A stretch of DNA of 9,370 nt from JBHIBR01 sp046759145 [NCBI: Nitrospinota bacterium]. Its GTDB lineage: Bacteria > UBA8248. The first letter of the stretch is position 1, and each line of letters opens with the position of its first letter. The stretch covers positions 1 to 9,370 of the forward strand of contig JBHIBR010000042.1 in NCBI GenBank assembly GCA_046759145.1, read 5' to 3'. The position numbers and the translations under genes were made by a program. The notes beneath the pieces were generated by a model. The model saw only the letters and a program-made list of their open reading frames with translations. It was not told the DNA's origin and made no database searches. Of this stretch, positions 1 to 8,966 are shown one piece after another.

Positions 1-211
1 GGGAGGAGATGCGCGCGTAGAGCGGCTCCGCCGTCACCCGCCCCAGGGAGTCCCCAACGGGCACGCGCTCGATGGGGAGGTTTCCGGGCGAGCCCGCGAG
101 GGCGAGGAATCGCGCGCGGGCCTCCTCGAGGGGGGTATCCTCCAGGTAGATGGTCCGCTCGGCCTTCACCCCCGGCTCCTTGCGGATGCCGTAAAGCCTG
201 AGCTCCGCCAT
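1..211 (-). CDS. MoeA-family molybdopterin molybdenumtransferase, second paralog (5' part only)
   Basis: Seventy codons are visible before the window edge. The protein begins MAELRLYGIRKEPGVKAERT, then has an N-terminal MoeA-like stretch with LEEARARFLALAG and the motif ERVPVGDSLGRVTAEPLYAR, which matches the LeuGlyArgValLeuAlaGlu region at the start of MoeA proteins. The ATG overlaps the TGA of the upstream moeA as TGATG, so the two are probably translationally coupled. In many bacteria and archaea the second moeA of such a pair carries an extra C-terminal periplasmic-binding-protein-like domain; whether this one does cannot be seen. MoeA proteins insert molybdate (or tungstate) into adenylylated molybdopterin. 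The roughly 30-residue extension ahead of the MoeA core is unlike its neighbour. Family call is fairly secure; metal specificity and domain architecture are unknown. Confidence 0.75.
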   Translation of the reverse strand, partial: MAELRLYGIRKEPGVKAERTIYLEDTPLEEARARFLALAGSPGNLPIERVPVGDSLGRVTAEPLYARISS

Positions 212-1452
212 CAGAAGAGCCTCACCTCGACCTCCTGCCCCTCCCGCAGCCCCTCAGCCTCCAGGGGGATCACGATGTAGCCGTGGGCGCGCGTCATGGT
301 GGAGATCATGGCCGAGTTCCCCATCAGGGGCCGCGCCAGGAAGGGGGGAGCCCCCCCCTCCAGGGCCACCCGCACGAGGTCCTCCCGCCCGGGGGCGGAG
401 GGGAGATTGCGCGCCAATCGCGCCCGCACCCGGGGCCCTCCCTCGAAGGGCTCGGGCGCCAGGCCGGAGAGCGCCCGGAGGATGGGGCGGACGAACACGT
501 GGAAGATCATCAGGGCCGAGGCGGGATGGCCCGGGATGCCGAAGATGGCCTTCTCCGCCTCCCCCCGGCGCACGCGGCCGATGATGGTGGGTTTGCCCGG
601 CTTGATGGATATCCCGTGGACCAGGACGCCCGGCTCTCCCAGCGAGTTGATGGCCTGGACGGCGTAATCCCGGACGCCGAGGGAGCTCCCTCCCGAGATC
701 AGCACCGCGTCGCTCCGCTCGGCGGCCTCACCGAGGCGGGCCTTGATGAGCTCCAGGTCGTCCCGCAGGATCTCGTCCGTCCAGGGATCGCCCCCGCACT
801 CCCGCACGGCCGCGGCAAGGGAGAAGCGGTTGATGTCGCGCACCTGGCCGCGCTCGGGCTCTTCCCGGGGGTCCACGAGCTCATCCCCGGTGGGGAGGAT
901 GGCGACCCGCGGCCTGCGATGCACCTTCACCTCCACCACCCCCACGCCCGAGAGCGCCCCCACATCCTGGGGGCGAAGGCGGGTCCCCCGGGGCAGGATG
1001 ACGGCCCCCTTCTTGAGGTCGTCCCCGACGCGGAGCACGTTCTCGCCCACCGCGACTCCCCGCTTCACTTCCACCGTGCGCTCATCAACCAGCGTGGTGA
1101 ACTCCTCCATCACCACCGCGTCCGCCCCCTCGGGCATCATCCCCCCCGTGGGGATCTCGGCCGCCCGGCCCGGGGCGAGGGCGAAGGAGGGAGCCTTCCC
1201 CATCTTCACCCCCCCTTCCAGCTCGAGGTAGGCGGGCAGGCTCTCGCTCGCCCCGAAGGTATCCGAAGCGCGCACGGCATAGCCGTCCATGGTCGCGCGG
1301 GGAAAGTCAGGGAGGTCAACGGGGCTTCGGACATCCTCGGCGAGCACCCTTCCCACCGCCTCCAGGGAGGAGACGGTCTCAGCCGGCAGGGGAGAAAGGC
1401 CCCCGACGGCCTCGAGCGCCTCGGCCGGTGTGACGACCTTGAAGAACTCCAT
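211..1452 (-). CDS. moeA: Molybdopterin molybdenumtransferase MoeA
   Basis: The 413-residue protein is full length for MoeA, the cytosolic enzyme that releases AMP from adenylyl-molybdopterin while inserting molybdate to form Moco. Visible motifs in order: LPDFPRATMDGYAV (about 47-60), PTGGMMPEGADAVV (101-114), the MoCF_biosynth domain with LPTGDEL (186-192), ISGGSSLGVRDY (252-263) and KPGKP (284-288), then GIPGHPASA (305-313) leading into the C-terminal domain IV (about 335-413). I chose the ATG at 1452; a TTG codon directly before it (1455-1453) could also start the protein. The purine stretch AAGGG lies close upstream as a ribosome site. An intrinsic terminator and Moco riboswitch occupy the leader, so expression is probably turned down by the pathway end product. 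The TGA overlaps the next moeA-family start by one base. Confidence 0.95.
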   Translation of the reverse strand: MEFFKVVTPAEALEAVGGLSPLPAETVSSLEAVGRVLAEDVRSPVDLPDFPRATMDGYAVRASDTFGASESLPAYLELEGGVKMGKAPSFALAPGRAAEIPTGGMMPEGADAVVMEEFTTLVDERTVEVKRGVAVGENVLRVGDDLKKGAVILPRGTRLRPQDVGALSGVGVVEVKVHRRPRVAILPTGDELVDPREEPERGQVRDINRFSLAAAVRECGGDPWTDEILRDDLELIKARLGEAAERSDAVLISGGSSLGVRDYAVQAINSLGEPGVLVHGISIKPGKPTIIGRVRRGEAEKAIFGIPGHPASALMIFHVFVRPILRALSGLAPEPFEGGPRVRARLARNLPSAPGREDLVRVALEGGAPPFLARPLMGNSAMISTMTRAHGYIVIPLEAEGLREGQEVEVRLF

Positions 1453-1466
1453 CAACCCTTGCCCAC

Positions 1467-1500
1467 AAAAAAGGCCAGCTCCCGCATGCAGGGAGCTGGC
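1467..1500 (-). terminator. Intrinsic terminator in the moeA leader
   Basis: A perfect 10-bp stem, GCCAGCTCCC with GGGAGCTGGC, encloses a 7-nt loop. On the minus strand it is followed by one C and six T residues (1472-1467). It lies only 15 bases upstream of the moeA ATG, after the aptamer, so it acts in the leader as the off-state of the riboswitch and not as an end for moeA. It would also stop read-through from tatA. Confidence 0.9.
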
Positions 1501-1715
1501 TCAGCCGACAAGCCAGCCCTCCTTTCCAAACGCGGGAGGCTCCAACGTTTCCGTCGAAACCCTATCGGCCCCCGGCCAACGGGCCGGTGCGATGCGGCCA
1601 ATCCTTTTGAGCCCCAGTTCCGCAGGGGGGACCCTACAGAACAGGGCGCAAACGCGGGGCCGCTCGGCCCCCGGCCCTAGGCATCCGCCCGTAGGCCGCG
1701 GGGCTCGGAGGCTGG
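1467..1715 (-). promoter_or_regulatory. Moco (molybdenum cofactor) riboswitch with transcription-termination expression platform
   Basis: On the minus strand, 1542-1520 read GCCTCCCGCG, TTTGGAAAGG and A. This closely matches the conserved 3' core of the E. coli moaA leader as I remember it (GCCTCCCGTATCTGGAAAGG). As in that RNA, the final GG begins the closing helix P1: CCAGCCUCC (1715-1707) pairs with GGAGGGCUGG (1522-1513), nine pairs with one bulged G. The 3' arm of P1 can alternatively pair with GCCAGCUC (1500-1493) as an antiterminator, and that segment is also the 5' arm of the terminator just before moeA. P1 formation would therefore release the terminator, giving repression by cofactor. 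Internal hairpins are seen at 1656-1671, 1632-1646 and 1572-1587. The roughly 200-nt aptamer is longer than the E. coli one, and the 5' half is not easily aligned. Tungsten-cofactor (Tuco) sensing is an alternative. Confidence 0.78.
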
Positions 1716-1729
1716 TATCCCTTTCCCCC

Positions 1730-1759
1730 AAGCTACCACAGGACCCGGGGTGGTGTCAG
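1730..1759 (-). promoter_or_regulatory. Weak candidate promoter for the riboswitch-moeA transcript
   Basis: Minus strand CTGACA (1759-1754) and TAGCTT (1735-1730) are separated by 18 bases, which would start transcription near 1723, a few bases before P1 of the riboswitch. The -35 is a good match but the -10 is poor, and it overlaps the tatA stop codon. Read-through from the tatA promoter is an equally likely source of the transcript. Confidence 0.3.
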
Positions 1760-1959
1760 CTACCTTTTTCCTCGGGGGCCTTCTCGGCGATCTCGCCCCC
1801 CTTTTTGCTCTCCTCCTCGTCCTCCCGGATGCCCTGGCGGAAGCTCTTGATCCCCCGGGCGAGGCCCGAGCCGATCTCCGGCAGGCGCTTCGCCCCGAAG
1901 ACCAGGACGGCGATGGCCAGGATGGCGAGGAGCTCCCAGAGCCCGATGGTGGGGAACAT
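1756..1959 (-). CDS. tatA: Twin-arginine translocase subunit TatA
   Basis: A 67-residue protein starting MFPTIGLWELLAILAIAVLV. It has the TatA/TatE layout: a short periplasmic N-terminus, one transmembrane helix (about 5-20), the FGAKRLPEIGSGLARGIKSF hinge and amphipathic helix (about 21-41), and a charged Glu/Lys tail. TatA polymerises to form the channel through which folded twin-arginine precursors cross the inner membrane. I chose the ATG at 1959, preceded by GGGGAGAGGAT, over an upstream in-frame start at 2007 that would add 16 residues ahead of the conserved MFP start. TatB is unlikely because the protein is short and the Gly-Phe hinge is of TatA type (FG-KRLPE). Its neighbours make molybdenum cofactor, and many Tat substrates are Moco enzymes. 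No tatB or tatC is in the window. Confidence 0.93.
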   Translation of the reverse strand: MFPTIGLWELLAILAIAVLVFGAKRLPEIGSGLARGIKSFRQGIREDEEESKKGGEIAEKAPEEKGS

Positions 1960-2166
1960 ATCCTCTCCCCCTCTGGCGACAGACCTAGGCGGCGGCTGCC
2001 TCGGCAAACGCTCGGGCGGCGGCGCTCACGCCTTCCCCCGCCCATCCGCCACACTTTCGGGGCGATAGCGCCGAAACCCCCTCTACGGCATTATTTTACT
2101 CCCTTATGAGCCACTCTGCACCCTCGAAGCATGCATCTCGCCGCGACCGGCGCTATCATTAGGGCT
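1960..2166. promoter_or_regulatory. Divergent intergenic region between tatA and the plus-strand membrane protein
   Basis: This 207-bp gap must hold promoters for both directions. The AT-rich island at 2088-2106 contains TAAAAT on the minus strand (2098-2093), a possible tatA -10 without a clear -35. On the plus strand TATCAT (2154-2159) sits seven bases before the ATG at 2167, which would give a nearly leaderless transcript. The 10-mer GATAGCGCCG occurs at 2064-2073 and inverted at 2148-2157. A TTTCGG/CCGAAA inverted repeat spans 2055-2076. No known operator was recognised. Confidence 0.4.
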
Positions 2167-2541
2167 ATGAAAGCCCACCGACGCAGTAGGCGCGTTGGGG
2201 AACTGCCAGCCGAGCGAGGGCGCTTCTGGGTCAAGTTGGTCCTCCCCCTTGCCTTCCTCCTCCTCGTCCTCTCCCTGCCCTTTTTCCTCATCCCCGAAGA
2301 TGTGGTGGAGCGGGGGATCGTGCGTTTTCCGGGCGCCCCGGAGGCTGGCCGCACGCCGTCGCTCTTCCAGCAGTGGATGCAACTGGGGATCGCCTTCCTC
2401 TTAGTTCCCCTCCTCGTGGGAGGCTGGATGCTCTACACCATCACCCGCCACCAGAGCCGCACCTGGGCCCGGAGGTTCGGGCCAGGGAGGAGGAAAGAGC
2501 AGAAGCCCCCGCCCCCTAGCCCAGGGGCCAGGAGGGGATGA
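2167..2541 (+). CDS. Hypothetical two-transmembrane protein
   Basis: A 124-residue protein starting MKAHRRSRRVGELPAERG. It has a basic cytosolic N-terminus, a first transmembrane segment FWVKLVLPLAFLLLVLSLPF (about 20-42), a loop of about 30 residues, a second segment LGIAFLLVPLLVGGWMLYTI (about 73-92), and a basic, proline-rich tail WARRFGPGRRKEQKPPPP. I do not recognise the family. The hydrophobic pattern and positive-inside charges support a real gene, although it is the only one on this strand. The ATG at 2167 was preferred over an upstream one at 2131, because it has AGGG upstream and avoids overlap with the divergent promoter region. The last 25 codons have a near copy with its own in-frame TGA at 2931-3023, which suggests a paralog tail. 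Function unknown. Confidence 0.6.
   Translation: MKAHRRSRRVGELPAERGRFWVKLVLPLAFLLLVLSLPFFLIPEDVVERGIVRFPGAPEAGRTPSLFQQWMQLGIAFLLVPLLVGGWMLYTITRHQSRTWARRFGPGRRKEQKPPPPSPGARRG
2463..2483 (+). repeat. 21-bp direct repeat, copy 1 (hairpin-forming)
   Basis: CTGGGCCCGGAGGTTCGGGC plus a final C is identical at 2930-2950. Within it GGCCCG (2466-2471) pairs with CGGGCC (2478-2483) around a 6-nt loop. This copy codes for the WARRFGP segment of the plus-strand membrane protein. Weaker similarity continues downstream through the stop codon. Confidence 0.85.
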
Positions 2542-2570: not shown

Positions 2571-2786
2571 CTAGGATTTCCCCAGCGCCACGTCTTCGAG
2601 GATAACTTGCCGGAAGATTGCGGGATCCCCGAGACGCTCGACCGCATCCAGGATCTCGATGCCGGCCAGGCGCCCCTCGGCGTCGTAATCCGCCGCGATC
2701 CCCTCGGCCAGGTGCTTCGTTATGACGGTCGTTTCCTTGAAGCGTATGTAGAGGGCATCCACCTCGCGATCATATGTGATTTTCAT
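2571..2786 (-). CDS. DUF2283 domain small protein
   Basis: A 71-residue protein starting MKITYDREVDALYIRFKE, with VITKHLAEGIAADYDAEGRL and AGIEILDA. This is the typical DUF2283 pattern: a first beta strand with DxxADALYI-like residues, then a GIxxDYDxxGxxxGIEIL repeat. The ATG at 2786 has GGAGGAGGG upstream; a longer start at 2807 would add seven arginine-rich residues. Members are often found beside DUF4258 proteins and are suspected antitoxins. No DUF4258 partner is visible here, so it looks like an orphan. It lies between the two copies of the duplicated coding tail and directly downstream of a methylase-like remnant, in an accessory stretch that also holds hicBA. Function unproven. Confidence 0.82.
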   Translation of the reverse strand: MKITYDREVDALYIRFKETTVITKHLAEGIAADYDAEGRLAGIEILDAVERLGDPAIFRQVILEDVALGKS

Positions 2787-3121: not shown

Positions 3122-3364
3122 TCACCCGAATAACTTCTCCATCAATTCTTCCCGGGCAAGGTTCGCGTGGGCCGCAACATCGTGAAGGATTGCACTCAAC
3201 GTGCCCACGCGCAGAGGACCGTGCCGAGGTATAGTGATATGGTGCTCCCCGCCCCGTTGCGTCGTGAGACGGATGTGGCTCCCTGTCTGGCGGGTCACCG
3301 TATAGCCCAGCCGGGCGAGCGCGCGAGCGAGGGACTCTCCGGTGAGGTCCCGCGGGAGCTTCAA
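3122..3364 (-). CDS. hicA: HicA-family mRNA interferase toxin
   Basis: An 80-residue protein that starts at TTG and reads MKLPRDLTGESLARALARLG, YTVTRQTGSHIRL, then HHITIPRHGPLRVGTLSAIL. It has the dsRBD-like HicA fold: an N-terminal helix (about 9-20), a strand, the Gly-Ser-His motif (28-30) with the catalytic histidine, the IPRHGPL strand turn (45-51), and a C-terminal helix. HicA toxins cut mRNA and block translation. No ATG or GTG lies in frame nearby; the TTG at 3364-3362 overlaps the hicB stop as TTGA, which indicates translational coupling. The longer open frame upstream belongs to antisense of hicB and the CoA-transferase. The usual length is 60-85 residues, so it looks intact. Confidence 0.85.
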   Translation of the reverse strand: MKLPRDLTGESLARALARLGYTVTRQTGSHIRLTTQRGGEHHITIPRHGPLRVGTLSAILHDVAAHANLAREELMEKLFG

Positions 3365-3570
3365 AGGGCCATCACCTCGTCCCGCACGAAGTGAAGGCGC
3401 AAGAGTTTTGGGCGGTCCTCGGGGTTTTCGAAGTGGCAGATCACGGCGTCGCGGACGTTCTGTCGTAATTCCTCCATCGTATCCGCTTGGGTGAAAATGC
3501 TCTCCCCCAGGGCGCGGGCAGCGAAGCCACCTTCTGGGTCTTCCTCCACCAGAAACACCAATTCGGTCAT
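3361..3570 (-). CDS. hicB: HicB-like antitoxin
   Basis: A 69-residue protein beginning MTELVFLVEEDPEGGFAARA, with GESIFTQADTMEELRQNVRD and a basic end RPKLLRLHFVRDEV. The beta-beta-alpha partial RNase H fold of HicB is clear (strands about 3-9 and 14-20, helix 31-45). Close relatives are often misnamed 2-oxoisovalerate dehydrogenase in databases. It should bind and neutralise the HicA downstream. It has no C-terminal helix-turn-helix or ribbon-helix-helix, so self-regulation by DNA binding is unlikely unless through another protein. The SD-like GGGGAGGG lies upstream. The gene starts only 15 bases after the CoA-transferase stop, so it may be co-transcribed with that metabolic gene. The antitoxin-first order is the less common one. 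Confidence 0.87.
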   Translation of the reverse strand: MTELVFLVEEDPEGGFAARALGESIFTQADTMEELRQNVRDAVICHFENPEDRPKLLRLHFVRDEVMAL

Positions 3571-3585
3571 GGACTGGCCCTCCCC

Positions 3586-5046
3586 TCACACCGCCCCGCT
3601 CGCCCGGAGCCTTTCGACCTCTTCTGCGGTGTAGCCGAGCTCTTGCAGGACCTCGTCCGTGTGCTCCCCAAGGCGCGGGGGGGGCCGGGAGAAATCGGGC
3701 GAGGCTTCCGAGAAGAAGAAGGGGCTCCCCGCCATGAGGAGCGAACCCCCTTCGGGCTGAGGGACCTCGACAAAGCACTCGGGAAAGCGCGCCTTCACCT
3801 CGGCCACGTTGTTGATGGCGGTCACGGGGACGCCCTTGGGGATGAGCTCCCTCTCCCACTCCTCGGTGGTCTTCTTCTTGAAGATCTCCCCCAGGATCGA
3901 CCGGAGGTCGGCGTCGTTTCGGACGCGGTCGGCGTTCTCCCGGAAGCGGGGGTCCTCGGCGAGTTGTGGCCTTCCGAGAGCGTCCACGAGCACCCGGAAG
4001 CGGTTCGTGTTCGAGATGGCGAGGTAGATGAGGCCGTCGGCGGTGGGGAAGCCCGCGAAGGGGGCCACTACGGGGTGGGCGAGGCCTTCGGGCTTGGGGA
4101 CCTCGCCCGAGACGCTGTGGCGCACCACGGGGTTCTCCATCAGGTTGACCGTGCAGGCGAGCATGCTGATGTCCACCCGCTGGCCCCGGCCCGTCCGCTC
4201 CCGCTGGAGGAGCGCAGAGAGGACCCCGATGAGGAGGAAGAGGCCGCTTGTGATGTCCGAGATGGAGACCCCCACCCGGACGGGAGGGCCCCCCGCGGGG
4301 CCGGTGACGCTGATGAGGCCCCCGGCGGCCTGGAGGAGGGAGTCGAAGGCGGGCCGCTGGGCGTGAGGTCCCACGGGCCCGAAGCCCGAGGCGGCGGCGT
4401 AGATGAGGCGGGGGTTTACCTCCCTCAGGCGCGCGTAGCCCACCCCCAACCGGTCCATGACGCCGGGGCGGTAGTTCTCGATGAGCACATCCGCCCCCCG
4501 GACGAGGCGCACGAAGACTTCCCGCCCTTCCTCCTTTTTCAGGTCCAGGGTGAGAGAGCGCTTGCCGCGGTTCAGGCTCATGAAGTAGCTGCTCTCACCC
4601 CGGCCACCGGGCCGGAGCGGGATCGCCCGCTCTGTTGGTGCCCCCCTTCCCCAGGGGGGCTCAGAGGAGCTGGCTCCCCGCCCGGGGGCGCGTGCCCCCC
4701 GGCCACCGGGCCGGAGCGAAACCGCCTGCTCCGTTCGGGCCCCGGCACGCGAGGGGGGCTCGAAGGAACTGGCGTCACGCCCGGGGCCGCCTGGCCCCCG
4801 GCCACCGGGCCGGAGCGAATTCGCCCGCCCTGGTGGAGCCCCGGCAGGCAAGAGGGGCTCAAGGGAACTGGTTCCCCGCCCGGGGCCGCCTGGCCCCCAG
4901 AAGGGGCCGATGTCGCGGGCGTCATCGCCCGAGGGCCTCTCCACCTTCACCACATCCGCCCCGAAGGCCGCGAGGTAGAGGGAAACGATGGGACCGGCGA
5001 GGAACTGGCTTGCATCAACGACTTTGAGACCCTTCAGGTCGGCCAT
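3586..5046 (-). CDS. CaiB/BaiF class III CoA-transferase with a 99-residue repeat insertion
   Basis: A 486-residue protein that starts MADLKGLKVVDASQFLAGPI. It shows DVVKVERPSGDDARD (31-45), then after an insertion ESSYFMSLNRGKRSLTLDLK (151-170), ADVLIENYRPG (185-195), the catalytic aspartate in RPAFD (Asp235), QAAGGLISVTG, and DISMLACTVNLMENP. Such enzymes move CoA between acyl groups, as in formyl-CoA or carnitine-CoA transfer, or racemise 2-methylacyl-CoA; the substrate cannot be told. Without the insertion the length (387) is normal. The insertion, residues 52-150, is three units of 33 residues between the glycine loop and the ESxYF motif. The ATG at 5046 has no clear ribosome site and follows the DUF35 stop by 32 bases, suggesting coupling. 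A TTG at 5052 is an alternative start. Confidence 0.93.
   Translation of the reverse strand: MADLKGLKVVDASQFLAGPIVSLYLAAFGADVVKVERPSGDDARDIGPFWGPGGPGRGTSSLEPLLPAGAPPGRANSLRPGGRGPGGPGRDASSFEPPSRAGARTEQAVSLRPGGRGARAPGRGASSSEPPWGRGAPTERAIPLRPGGRGESSYFMSLNRGKRSLTLDLKKEEGREVFVRLVRGADVLIENYRPGVMDRLGVGYARLREVNPRLIYAAASGFGPVGPHAQRPAFDSLLQAAGGLISVTGPAGGPPVRVGVSISDITSGLFLLIGVLSALLQRERTGRGQRVDISMLACTVNLMENPVVRHSVSGEVPKPEGLAHPVVAPFAGFPTADGLIYLAISNTNRFRVLVDALGRPQLAEDPRFRENADRVRNDADLRSILGEIFKKKTTEEWERELIPKGVPVTAINNVAEVKARFPECFVEVPQPEGGSLLMAGSPFFFSEASPDFSRPPPRLGEHTDEVLQELGYTAEEVERLRASGAV
4597..4893 (-). repeat. Three 99-bp tandem repeats inside the CoA-transferase gene
   Basis: The plus-strand marker GGCCACCGGGCCGGAGCG occurs at 4602, 4701 and 4800, exactly 99 bases apart, giving three complete units. 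Each codes for 33 residues ending SLRPGGRG or PLRPGGRG, with an internal SSxEP motif. Unit 1 starts PGGPGRGTSS, unit 2 PGGPGRDASS and unit 3 ARAPGRGASS. Units differ by many substitutions but no length changes, so the frame is kept. Confidence 0.95.
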
Positions 5047-5078
5047 GGGCAAAGGATACTACGAAGGGGGAAAGGGCA

Positions 5079-6911: not shown

Positions 6912-7889
6912 TCAGCGAGGAGTGAGGGCCTGGCCTTCCTTCGGGGTGGTCTTCTTCCCAGGGTTTCCCGCGGGTGGCTTAGGCTGCGCGCGGGCCGTTT
7001 GCCCCGGGCGGGCAGTGTCCAGGGGCGCCCTTCCTTCGCTCGCGCCCAGGAAGCTCAGGAACTCTGAGTCGGGCGGGAGGATGAGGGTGGTCTTATCTTT
7101 GAGCGCGGTCCGGTAGGCTTCCAGGCTCTTGAGGAATGCGTAGAATTCGGGCTCCTGGCTGAAGGCCGCGGCCGTGATCTTGATCGCCAGGGCATCCCCC
7201 TCTCCCTTGAGCTTCTGCTCTTTCTCGTACGCCTCGGCGAGGAGGATAGTGCGTTCCTTGTCCGTCTGGGAGCGGATCTTGAGCGCCTCCTCCTTGCCTT
7301 CCGAGCGGTACTGGCGGGCGATGCGCTCGCGCTCGGCCTTCATCCGCCCGTAGACGGCCTGCTCGTTCTCGCGAGGAAGGTCCGCCCGCTTGATGCGCAC
7401 ATCGACCACCTGGATGCCGTACTCCAGCGCCTTCTTGGCGCTGCGCCCGGTGACGCGCTCCATCATCTCGCCGCGCTTTTCAGAGATGATGTCGTGGAAC
7501 AGGTGGCGAGCCAGCTCCACCCGGAGCTCGCTGTAGATGATGTCGTCCAGGCGGGCCTGGGCCCCATCTTCGTTCTGCACGGTCTGGAGGAAGAGCAGGG
7601 GGGCCACAATGCGCCAACGGGAGAAATTGTCCACTATCAGCGTCTTCTTGTCCGCAGTGATGACCTCGGTGGGGTTGGAATCGTACTCGAGGATGCGCCG
7701 TTCGAATGGATGGACCTTCTCGACGAAGGGCATCCGCCAGTGAAGGCCCGGGCCCTTGACCCCGCCCACGGGCTTTCCCAACCGGGTCACCACCGCCTGC
7801 TCCCATTCGCCCACCGTGTAGAAGACGGAATTGGCCAGTATCAGCAGGAGCACGATGGCGACGACGACGCCCACCAGGGCTTTCTGCAT
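6912..7889 (-). CDS. hflC: Protease modulator HflC
   Basis: A 325-residue SPFH/Band 7 protein. An N-terminal membrane anchor (about 4-24) is followed by FYTVGEWEQAVVTRLGKPVG, the conserved PGLHWRMPFVEKVHPFERRI, the IVDNFSRWRI strand, and YGIQVVDVRIKRADLPRENE typical of HflC. A long charged helix with MKAERERIARQYRSEGKEEA (about 180-235) comes next, then EFYAFLKSLEAYRTAL and the FLSFLG end motif (about 280). With HflK it forms a membrane cage around the AAA protease FtsH and restrains degradation of membrane substrates. A disordered Pro/Lys tail of about 40 residues follows. The ATG at 7889 has GGGAG upstream and lies 6 bases after the hflK stop, so the two form an operon. Confidence 0.97.
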   Translation of the reverse strand: MQKALVGVVVAIVLLLILANSVFYTVGEWEQAVVTRLGKPVGGVKGPGLHWRMPFVEKVHPFERRILEYDSNPTEVITADKKTLIVDNFSRWRIVAPLLFLQTVQNEDGAQARLDDIIYSELRVELARHLFHDIISEKRGEMMERVTGRSAKKALEYGIQVVDVRIKRADLPRENEQAVYGRMKAERERIARQYRSEGKEEALKIRSQTDKERTILLAEAYEKEQKLKGEGDALAIKITAAAFSQEPEFYAFLKSLEAYRTALKDKTTLILPPDSEFLSFLGASEGRAPLDTARPGQTARAQPKPPAGNPGKKTTPKEGQALTPR

Positions 7890-7895
7890 CGCTCC

Positions 7896-8966
7896 CTATC
7901 TCCGCGGCGCTTGCGCAGGGGGTGCCAGCCCCCCGCCCGGGGTCCCCAAGCGGCCTGCCGCTTGGGGCGCCCCGCCCGGCGTCTTCAGGGGAAGCAAGGG
8001 GATCACCCCTCCCGAGGGACCCGATTGCAAGATGATCTTCTCCATCCCGGGGAGGATCTCCTCCATGGTCTCCAGGTAGAGGCGCTTTCGGGTGATGTCT
8101 TCGGCTTTCTGGTACTCGGCGAGCATCACATTGAAGCGCGCCGCGTCACCCTGGGCACGCCGCCGCTTCTCCTCCCGATACGCCCCGGCCTGGTTCAGGA
8201 TCTGGGCCACCCTGCCCCGGGTCTCGGGGAGGATTTGGTTGCGGTAGGCATCAGCCTCTCTGATGGTGCGCTCCTTATCCTCGAGGGCGCTTGCCACATC
8301 CTTGAACGCCTGGGAGACCGGCTTGGGCGGATGGACGTCCTGGAGCTGGACCGCCACCACCTGGAGGCCGGACTCGTAGCGGTCCAGGATCGATTGGAGA
8401 AGCCGCTTGGTCTCCTGCTGGATGACGAATTTCCCCCCCGTGAGGGCGTCATTGATGGGCTTGGAGCCGACGATCTGACGGACGGCGGCCTCGGTGGCGA
8501 CCCGAACCGTGCGGTCGGGGTTTCGGATCCGGAAGAGGTACTTGACGGGATCTTGGATCCGGTACTGGACAATGAGGTCCATGTCCACGATGTTCTCATC
8601 GCCCGTGAGCATCAAGGACTCTTCCTGCATGTCCCGGTAGCGGGCGGGCGGGCCGATATCGATGGTGCGGAAGCCCACCTCTGCGCGCTTCACCTCGGTC
8701 ACCTTGGGCGTGTAAGCGCGCGCGATGGGAAAGGGCCAGTGGTAGTTGAGGCCGGGCATGGTGGTCCTGACGTGCTTCCCGAAGCGGAGCACCACGCCCC
8801 GCTCGTCCGGCCCCACGATGTAGATGCCCATGGCGAGCCACAGGAGCACGACCAGGAGGACGATGATGCCCGCCGGGAGGCGGACGTTGGGCAGGCGGAA
8901 CTCGGGGAGGTTCCAGGAGCCTCCCCCCCGCCGACGCATCCGGAACTCGTCCCAATCCATGGGCAT
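7896..8966 (-). CDS. hflK: Protease modulator HflK
   Basis: A 356-residue SPFH/Band 7 protein. A short charged and Gly-rich N-terminus precedes one transmembrane helix (about 32-50, AGIIVLLVVLLWLAMGIYIV). Next come GPDERGVVLRFGKHVRTTMP, the MLTGDENIVDMDLIVQYRI strand, and LQDVHPPKPVSQAFKDVASA, which is diagnostic of HflK. A coiled region with EAYRNQILPETRG-like residues and RKRLYLETMEEILPG follow. It partners HflC in the FtsH-regulating complex, with its main domain outside the inner membrane. The C-terminal 40 residues are Pro/Gly/Ala rich, and their DNA holds a perfect 10-bp hairpin. The first ATG (8966) is chosen; a second ATG six bases on is possible, and neither has a strong ribosome site. 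A promoter lies about 60 bases upstream, inside the previous gene. Confidence 0.97.
   Translation of the reverse strand: MPMDWDEFRMRRRGGGSWNLPEFRLPNVRLPAGIIVLLVVLLWLAMGIYIVGPDERGVVLRFGKHVRTTMPGLNYHWPFPIARAYTPKVTEVKRAEVGFRTIDIGPPARYRDMQEESLMLTGDENIVDMDLIVQYRIQDPVKYLFRIRNPDRTVRVATEAAVRQIVGSKPINDALTGGKFVIQQETKRLLQSILDRYESGLQVVAVQLQDVHPPKPVSQAFKDVASALEDKERTIREADAYRNQILPETRGRVAQILNQAGAYREEKRRRAQGDAARFNVMLAEYQKAEDITRKRLYLETMEEILPGMEKIILQSGPSGGVIPLLPLKTPGGAPQAAGRLGTPGGGLAPPAQAPRR
7944..7967. repeat. Perfect inverted repeat inside the 3' end of hflK
   Basis: CCCCAAGCGG (7944-7953) and CCGCTTGGGG (7958-7967) form a perfect 10-bp stem with a 4-base loop. It is flanked by the direct repeat CCCCGCCCGG at 7931-7940 and 7970-7979. 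The sequence codes for the Gly/Ala/Pro tail of HflK, close to the hflK-hflC junction. No T-run follows in either direction, so it is not an intrinsic terminator. Confidence 0.85.

What the first reader, a model, noticed from the sequence alone, without database searches (positions are those of the whole stretch)
1467..1715. Moco riboswitch with three mutually exclusive helices controlling paired moeA genes
The minus strand carries the Moco core (CCTCCCG...TTTGGAAAGG), a P1 helix whose 3' arm starts in the final GG of that core, an antiterminator using the same P1 arm (1519-1512 with 1500-1493, eight pairs including one G-U) and a perfect terminator (1500-1491 with 1483-1474 plus six U) right before moeA. 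The pairing logic predicts that ligand switches the operon off by transcription termination. The motif match is from memory of the E. coli moaA leader; the helices are read directly.
Basis: partly seen in the sequence, partly recalled or inferred. Interest (0 to 1): 0.8.

Follow-up and report, generated by a model that had tools for sequence, protein, structure and literature searches.

The report
Moco riboswitch carrying an inserted repeat
A known kind of RNA switch that senses the molybdenum or tungsten cofactor sits before two cofactor-making genes, and a 99-base repeat, also found three times inside a nearby protein gene, has inserted itself into the switch's sensing part.

Summary
Rfam's Moco model RF01055 matches 1722-1503 minus (56.5 bits, cut-off 36). 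P1, the 8-pair antiterminator and the 10-pair terminator lie where described. Their sequences recur in all 10 Moco leaders found in 18 genomes of one class. Order: tatA, riboswitch, moeA, second moeA; relatives add moaA. It is a terminator-type, presumably cofactor-OFF member of a known class.

Those 10 leaders lack stem P3, the form Regulski et al. 2008 link to tungsten cofactor. In the window 99 nt are inserted at the P2/P4 junction, where P3 would stand. The insert is homologous to a 99-bp unit present three times in tandem, in frame, in the CoA-transferase gene at 4598-4898 (alignment score 39; best of 1000 shuffles 23). Eight of eight close homologues of that gene lack it. Removing 99 nt leaves a P3-less aptamer. 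A dispersed, hairpin-forming repeat has therefore entered a riboswitch aptamer.

Whether it is a tolerated hairpin, a new P3 or a disruption is open. The host genome is not held, so copy number and mobility are untested.

The parts
1503..1722 (-). Moco/Tuco riboswitch aptamer (RF01055), interrupted by the repeat
   Evidence: 56.5 bits, gathering 36, E 1.1e-11, model 1-135 of 135, 88 nt unaligned in P3
1707..1715 (-). P1 5' arm CCAGCCTCC
1513..1522 (-). P1 3' arm GGAGGGCTGG, one bulged G; overlaps the antiterminator
1667..1704 (-). P2 with its near (proximal) 3' arm; the P2 5' arm can pair instead with the far copy of that strand at 1567-1577
1574..1672 (-). 99-nt repeat unit inserted at the P2/P4 junction (P3 position); GGGGG direct repeats start at 1672 and 1573, exactly 99 apart
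1537..1562 (-). P4 with GAAA tetraloop
1521..1539 (-). conserved core CCTCCCG...TTTGGAAAGG
1493..1519 (-). antiterminator: 1519-1512 with 1500-1493
   Evidence: eight pairs, -13.8 kcal/mol as a duplex
1467..1500 (-). intrinsic terminator: 1500-1491 with 1483-1474, C, then six U
211..1452 (-). moeA (MoeA_N, MoCF_biosynth, MoeA_C)
2..211 (-). start of a second moeA (runs off the window); its ATG overlaps the stop of the first moeA
   Evidence: full-length relative with PBP_like domain
1756..2007 (-). tatA-like gene directly upstream of the leader
4598..4898 (-). three tandem copies (period 99) of the same repeat, in frame inside the CoA-transferase gene
3586..5052 (-). CoA-transferase family III gene with the 3 x 33-residue insert

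Best explanation
It is a Moco/Tuco-class riboswitch (RF01055) acting as a transcription attenuator between tatA and the moeA operon. With cofactor bound, P1 holds the GGGCTGG strand, the terminator forms and moeA is switched off. Without cofactor the strand pairs with the terminator's 5' arm and transcription reads through. Shown: motif, helices, recurrence in relatives, gene order. Inferred: ligand, direction of control, read-through from tatA. In this lineage a 99-nt GC-rich, hairpin-forming dispersed repeat has inserted into the 3' strand of P2 of an ancestrally P3-less aptamer, with GGGGG at both edges, so that it now sits as a long hairpin in the P3 position. The most likely outcome is that the aptamer still works, because a complete P2 can still form with the near strand and the conserved core and expression platform are intact.
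For: Rfam hit. RF01055 in 10 of 18 class genomes, each match followed by moeA, all 10 with P1, GCTGG/CCAGC complementarity and a terminator hairpin with U run. GCTGG is invariant in 11 of 11 while the P1 5' arm changes and keeps pairing. Terminator pair 7, read by hand, is C-G in nine leaders, U-G in G016 and U-A in the window. Ligand-free folding of growing transcripts gives P1 0.83 up to 1500, then antiterminator 0.65-1.0 from 1495 to 1467. P2-P4 linker of 3-4 nt, no P3, in 10 of 10 relatives. Insert homologous to the in-frame array: score 39 against a maximum of 23 in 1000 shuffles; same 99-nt spacing. With 99 nt removed the region folds as a P3-less aptamer, and the CoA-transferase reads IGPFWGESSYFMSLNR, as in orthologues but for one residue of length.
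Against: No ligand-binding or expression data. Secondary-structure energies favour pairing the P2 5' arm with the far strand copy by 3.3 kcal/mol once it is made (-110.1 against -106.8); that fold gives up the native upper P2, since forcing the far strand together with native upper P2 costs much more (-96.4). Of 8 aptamer-less leaders read, 7 keep a very similar terminator, so the terminator is not tied to the aptamer. The riboswitch copy is only 66-69% identical to the array copies, and two of the three array copies fold no better than shuffles (z -0.9, -0.7). No full copy was found in 21 relatives by DNA or model search, the latter scoring at most 150 candidates per genome.
Confidence: 0.72

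Rival explanations
1. The 99-nt stretch is an ordinary, native, lengthened P3, and its likeness to the CoA-transferase array is GC-rich coincidence.
For: Long extensions do occur in Moco RNAs: 5 of 112 listed matches span more than 150 nt, and G303 has a long native-looking P3.
Against: Alignment score 39 against mean 12.7 and maximum 23 in 1000 dinucleotide shuffles; the best listed match not overlapping the array scores 15. Same 99-nt spacing. No P3 in 10 of 10 class relatives.
Confidence: 0.05
2. The insertion has broken the switch: the duplicated strand lets P2 misfold, and the leader is decaying into a constitutive or dead attenuator.
For: Free folding prefers the far P2 strand. A sister group of 7 genomes has no recognisable aptamer while keeping the terminator.
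Against: Core letters are intact and RF01055 scores 56.5 bits, within the 50-67.8 of the 10 relatives. The window's antiterminator is the best paired of the 11, -20.2 against -12.2 to -13.8. While the transcript is shorter than the far copy, near-strand P2 dominates, 0.61-0.93.
Confidence: 0.22
3. The hairpin is simply the terminator of tatA; moeA has its own promoter or is read at low level, and the Moco motif is not coupled to it.
For: The leader begins 12-47 nt after the tatA stop. The terminator persists in 7 of 8 aptamer-less leaders read; the eighth, AT-rich L013, shows none by eye.
Against: The hairpin lies right before moeA and no promoter-like site was found in 1400-2150 (the scan covers sigma-70 type only). 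GCTGG/CCAGC complementarity between P1 and terminator is kept in 11 of 11 aptamer-bearing leaders.
Confidence: 0.12
4. Control is translational, by hiding the moeA start region, with the terminator secondary.
For: E. coli moaA is proposed to work through a ribosome site in P1 (PMC2408646, section 4 part 1 read).
Against: Here P1 ends about 60 nt upstream of the start codon with a complete terminator between.
Confidence: 0.05

Closest known systems
Moco RNA motif / molybdenum cofactor riboswitch, RF01055 (Regulski et al. 2008, PMC2408646: abstract, first part of section 4 and section 11 read)
   Same: Core sequence, P1, P2, P4 with GAAA loop, position upstream of Moco biosynthesis genes; that paper already describes members followed by intrinsic terminators
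   Different: A 99-nt dispersed repeat occupies the P3 position; the leader lies in a short tatA-moeA gap
P3-lacking (proposed tungsten-cofactor) subtype of the same class (PMC2408646 section 11)
   Same: All 10 leaders of class relatives lack P3, and so does the window leader once the 99 nt are taken out
   Different: The window copy now has a hairpin in the P3 position
Rickettsia palindromic elements, RPE (passages of review PMC10969869)
   Same: Short palindrome-forming repeat, inserted in frame in protein genes
   Different: No sequence relation tested; 99 rather than about 150 bp; host is a Nitrospinota/Tectomicrobia-like bacterium; only four copies seen, in one window
BOX element between two T-box riboswitches of the pneumococcal trp operon (passages of PMC3049150)
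   Same: Dispersed repeat inside a riboswitch leader that, by RNA-seq there, still appears to regulate
   Different: BOX lies between two whole riboswitches; here the repeat lies inside one aptamer

Membership tests
RF01055 Moco/Tuco riboswitch | Covariance-model score above the gathering cut-off | tested here: met
   56.5 against 36 bits
RF01055 Moco/Tuco riboswitch | GAAA tetraloop on P4 and conserved CCUCCCG / GGAAAGG junction | tested here: met
RF01055 Moco/Tuco riboswitch | Upstream of Moco biosynthesis, transport or usage genes | tested here: met
   moeA and a second moeA
RF01055 Moco/Tuco riboswitch | Expression changes with Moco or Tuco in cells | not testable with these tools
   needs a reporter assay
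Moco (P3-bearing) subtype | A short P3 stem between P2 and P4, native to the RNA | tested here: inconclusive
   A hairpin can stand there, but it is a repeat insertion; the lower-energy fold pairs the P2 5' arm beyond it
Tuco (P3-lacking) subtype | No P3 | tested here: not met
   Met by 10 of 10 relatives and by the window only after the 99 nt are removed
Tuco (P3-lacking) subtype | Organism has tungsten-enzyme genes | tested here: inconclusive
   AFOR_N in 18 of 18 class genomes, but 8 of these 18 lack an RF01055 match and E. coli also rings; the host genome is not held
MITE / palindromic repeat | Dispersed copies at unrelated places | tested here: met
   Two unrelated places, four copies, in 9.4 kb; copy number in the genome unknown
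MITE / palindromic repeat | Terminal inverted repeats | tested here: inconclusive
   Only short imperfect ones, local scores 7-10; the riboswitch copy folds better than shuffles (z -2.6), the array copies less or not (z -2.0, -0.9, -0.7)
MITE / palindromic repeat | Target-site duplication | tested here: inconclusive
   GGGG(G) at both edges in both places, but this could be part of the unit
MITE / palindromic repeat | Empty site in relatives | tested here: met
   riboswitch: 10 of 10 leaders; gene: 8 of 8 close homologues by tblastn
MITE / palindromic repeat | A transposase that moves it | not tested
   host genome not held

The most novel reading that the evidence does not exclude
A selfish palindromic repeat gave a P3-less, tungsten-cofactor-type riboswitch a P3 hairpin and thereby changed its ligand preference or set-point: a natural case of a mobile element evolving a riboswitch aptamer, together with a strand-exchange choice of P2 partner (near copy gives a P3-bearing junction, far copy a P3-less one).
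Probability: 0.1. Interest if true: 0.8.

Novelty: new variant of a known kind. Interest (0 to 1): 0.5.

Why it matters
P3 is the feature proposed to separate Moco- from Tuco-sensing RNAs; in the 2008 paper it was tested by deleting it from the E. coli RNA, which abolished regulation. Here nature has done the reverse, adding about 100 nt at the P3 site of a P3-less aptamer, with P3-less relatives at hand as controls. The same repeat sits in frame in a protein gene, so one element has entered both a structured RNA and a protein gene, which recalls the Rickettsia elements, in an uncultivated lineage. That makes the role of P3, and the tolerance of aptamers to inserted hairpins, directly testable. 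The attenuator itself is ordinary for its class.

Tried and rejected
Native lengthened P3 as explanation: rejected on the shuffle test and the 99-nt spacing. Dispersed core of the repeat in relatives: a 21-letter pattern with up to 3 mismatches gave 123 matches in 18 class genomes against 113 for the reversed control (more in 12 genomes, fewer in 4, equal in 2), none with fewer than 2 mismatches, so no clear excess. DNA searches in 21 relatives: the array gave two short partial matches, in G012 and G015, the riboswitch copy none; the G015 stretch is single-copy in G015 and absent from G012, G004 and G016, the G012 one was not followed; both are treated as chance. The covariance model found none in 21 relatives, with at most 150 of up to 8192 candidates per genome scored. 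A new aptamer in the aptamer-less group: RNAalifold on 7 leaders gave a covariation term of only -0.82, with 5 of 62 pairs changed on both sides, so not claimed. Phylum survey around G058 reached only 3 genomes; replaced by 386 relatives of G048. Literature: searches for Moco riboswitch or RNA, for riboswitch with mobile, palindromic, MITE or insertion terms and for Tectomicrobia/Nitrospinota; no listed title or abstract start reports a repeat inside a Moco aptamer, but searches listed only the top 8-20 of many papers, and the library is open-access only. Passages of PMC9495176 were seen and not used. RT-3 and HOTTIP_2 matches are below cut-off and ignored.

Full report
What is there. The minus strand from 1722 to 1503 matches Rfam RF01055 at 56.5 bits against a gathering score of 36. 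In 11 of 11 relatives' loci read, a second moeA-like start follows moeA and a MoaA-like motif follows about 2 kb later; in the one tested, L003, Pfam finds the MoaA domains Radical_SAM and Mob_synth_C.

Conservation. A protein search of a species-representative genome collection gave 40 loci with relatives of this MoeA; the closest, 69-73% identical, are metagenome assemblies, most labelled Nitrospinota, Nitrospinae or Tectomicrobia. The class around one of them holds 18 genomes. Ten of the 18 carry one RF01055 match each, and all ten are followed by moeA. In all ten plus the window, the P1 3' arm contains GCTGG and the terminator 5' arm CCAGC. The P1 5' arm changes between CCAGCC, CCACGC, CCGCGC and ACAGCC types and keeps pairing (-12.4 to -16.4 kcal/mol). 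GCTGG, which must serve two partners, never changes. The computed antiterminator duplex uses this pairing in 10 of 11; in G016 a different register scores best. Terminator pair 7, read by hand from that table, is C-G in nine, U-G in G016 and U-A in the window. G001 and G002 are nearly identical, so the independent number is smaller than eleven.

How it should work. Folding transcripts of growing length without ligand gives P1 0.83 when transcription has reached 1500, then the antiterminator (0.65 to 1.0 from 1495 to 1467, 0.79 at 1460), with terminator at most 0.21 in any length tested. So the ligand-free default is read-through, and a ligand that stabilises P1 would release the terminator. 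This equilibrium calculation ignores tertiary contacts and ligand. The leader begins only 12-47 nt after the tatA stop codon in 11 of 11, and no sigma-70-like site was found in 1400-2150. I infer that the riboswitch decides whether transcription from tatA continues into moeA. Against a tight link between aptamer and terminator: 7 of 8 aptamer-less leaders read keep a very similar terminator. Regulski et al. 2008 already describe Moco RNAs followed by intrinsic terminators (PMC2408646), and TaRTLEt reports RNA-seq evidence for termination at the E. coli moaA riboswitch (PMC12121620, passages), so the mechanism is not new.

The unexpected part. Rfam's model could not align 88 nt inside the aptamer. 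A self-comparison of the window shows that this stretch is a copy of a unit repeated three times in tandem at 4598-4898. The riboswitch copy scores 39 against the array; 1000 dinucleotide shuffles average 12.7 with a maximum of 23. The spacing is 99 in both places: the tandem array has period 99, and GGGGG runs flank the riboswitch copy at 1672 and 1573. Array copies are 78-83% identical to each other and 66-69% to the riboswitch copy. A covariance model and a profile HMM built from the four copies find those four as the only strong matches in the window, plus 2 and 3 weak opposite-strand matches that reflect the palindromic make-up; being built from them, they show completeness, not independence. 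As RNA the riboswitch copy folds better than its shuffles (z -2.6), the array copies less or not (z -2.0, -0.9 and -0.7).

Both places are insertions. In the CoA-transferase gene, eight close homologues (56-70% identical) align up to residue 51-53 and again from residue 137-152 onward with at most two residues between; the array encodes 3 x 33 residues in frame, and joining the flanks gives IGPFWGESSYFMSLNR, against relatives such as IGPFRAGESSYFMSLNR. Differences between array copies fall evenly on the three codon positions (4/8/5, 8/8/6, 6/7/10), whereas the rest of the gene against one orthologue is third-position-rich (70/70/117), so the inserted peptide seems weakly constrained. In the riboswitch, all ten relatives have only 3-4 nt between P2 and P4; removing 99 nt from the window leaves a clean P3-less aptamer, and core-to-core length falls from 182 to 83, against 88-106 in relatives.

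What it may do. P3 is the feature that separates Moco-type from proposed Tuco-type RNAs: 58 of 176 lacked it, and deleting P3 from the E. coli RNA abolished regulation (PMC2408646 section 11). The Moco RNAs found in the window's class are P3-less, and AFOR_N enzymes occur in 18 of 18 class genomes, which fits tungsten use but does not prove it: E. coli also rings, and eight of the eighteen lack an RF01055 match. The insertion leaves two copies of the strand GGCCGGGGGCC (1676-1666 and 1577-1567), so the P2 5' arm has two partners. Pairing with the near copy puts the repeat in the P3 position; pairing with the far copy places it inside P2. Energies favour the far copy by 3.3 kcal/mol once it exists (-110.1 against -106.8), at the price of the native upper P2 (far strand with native upper P2: -96.4), while the near pairing dominates (0.61-0.93) in shorter transcripts. 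I think the aptamer most likely still works, with appreciable doubt.

How unusual. In 386 relatives of another genome, 78 genomes had a match and 112 matches were listed; median span is 122 nt, 5 of 112 exceed 150 and one exceeds 200. Of three long ones examined, one has a 169-nt insert in the P2 loop, one a long P3, one smaller inserts in the P2 loop and in the last loop. Long inserts thus occur; one traceable to a dispersed repeat was not met in the searches named under Tried and rejected. Known parallels are Rickettsia palindromic elements in protein genes (PMC10969869, passages) and a pneumococcal BOX element between two T-box riboswitches (PMC3049150, passages).

Limits. No whole genome is held for the window. 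Copy number, mobility, a transposase, and any ligand response are untested.

Noticed in passing
L005, L006, L008, L009, L010, L011, L014, tatA-moeA gap: Seven class relatives without an RF01055 match keep a leader of roughly 190-270 nt with nearly the same terminator before moeA; a lost aptamer or another leader RNA. Covariation on the alignment is negligible.
   Followed up: partly
L165 1048-1336: Moco RNA with a 169-nt insert in the P2 loop; origin not examined.
   Followed up: no
window 3122-3570, minus: HicA-like toxin gene (PF07927) after a small ORF that matched no Pfam model; calling that ORF HicB-like is recall.
   Followed up: partly
window 2571-2786, minus: DUF2283 protein.
   Followed up: no
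window 6912-8966, minus: Two adjacent SPFH/Band 7 proteins, an HflC/HflK-like pair (the Hfl names are recalled).
   Followed up: no
window 2463-2496 and 2930-2963: A 34-nt direct repeat at 91% identity, unexplained.
   Followed up: no
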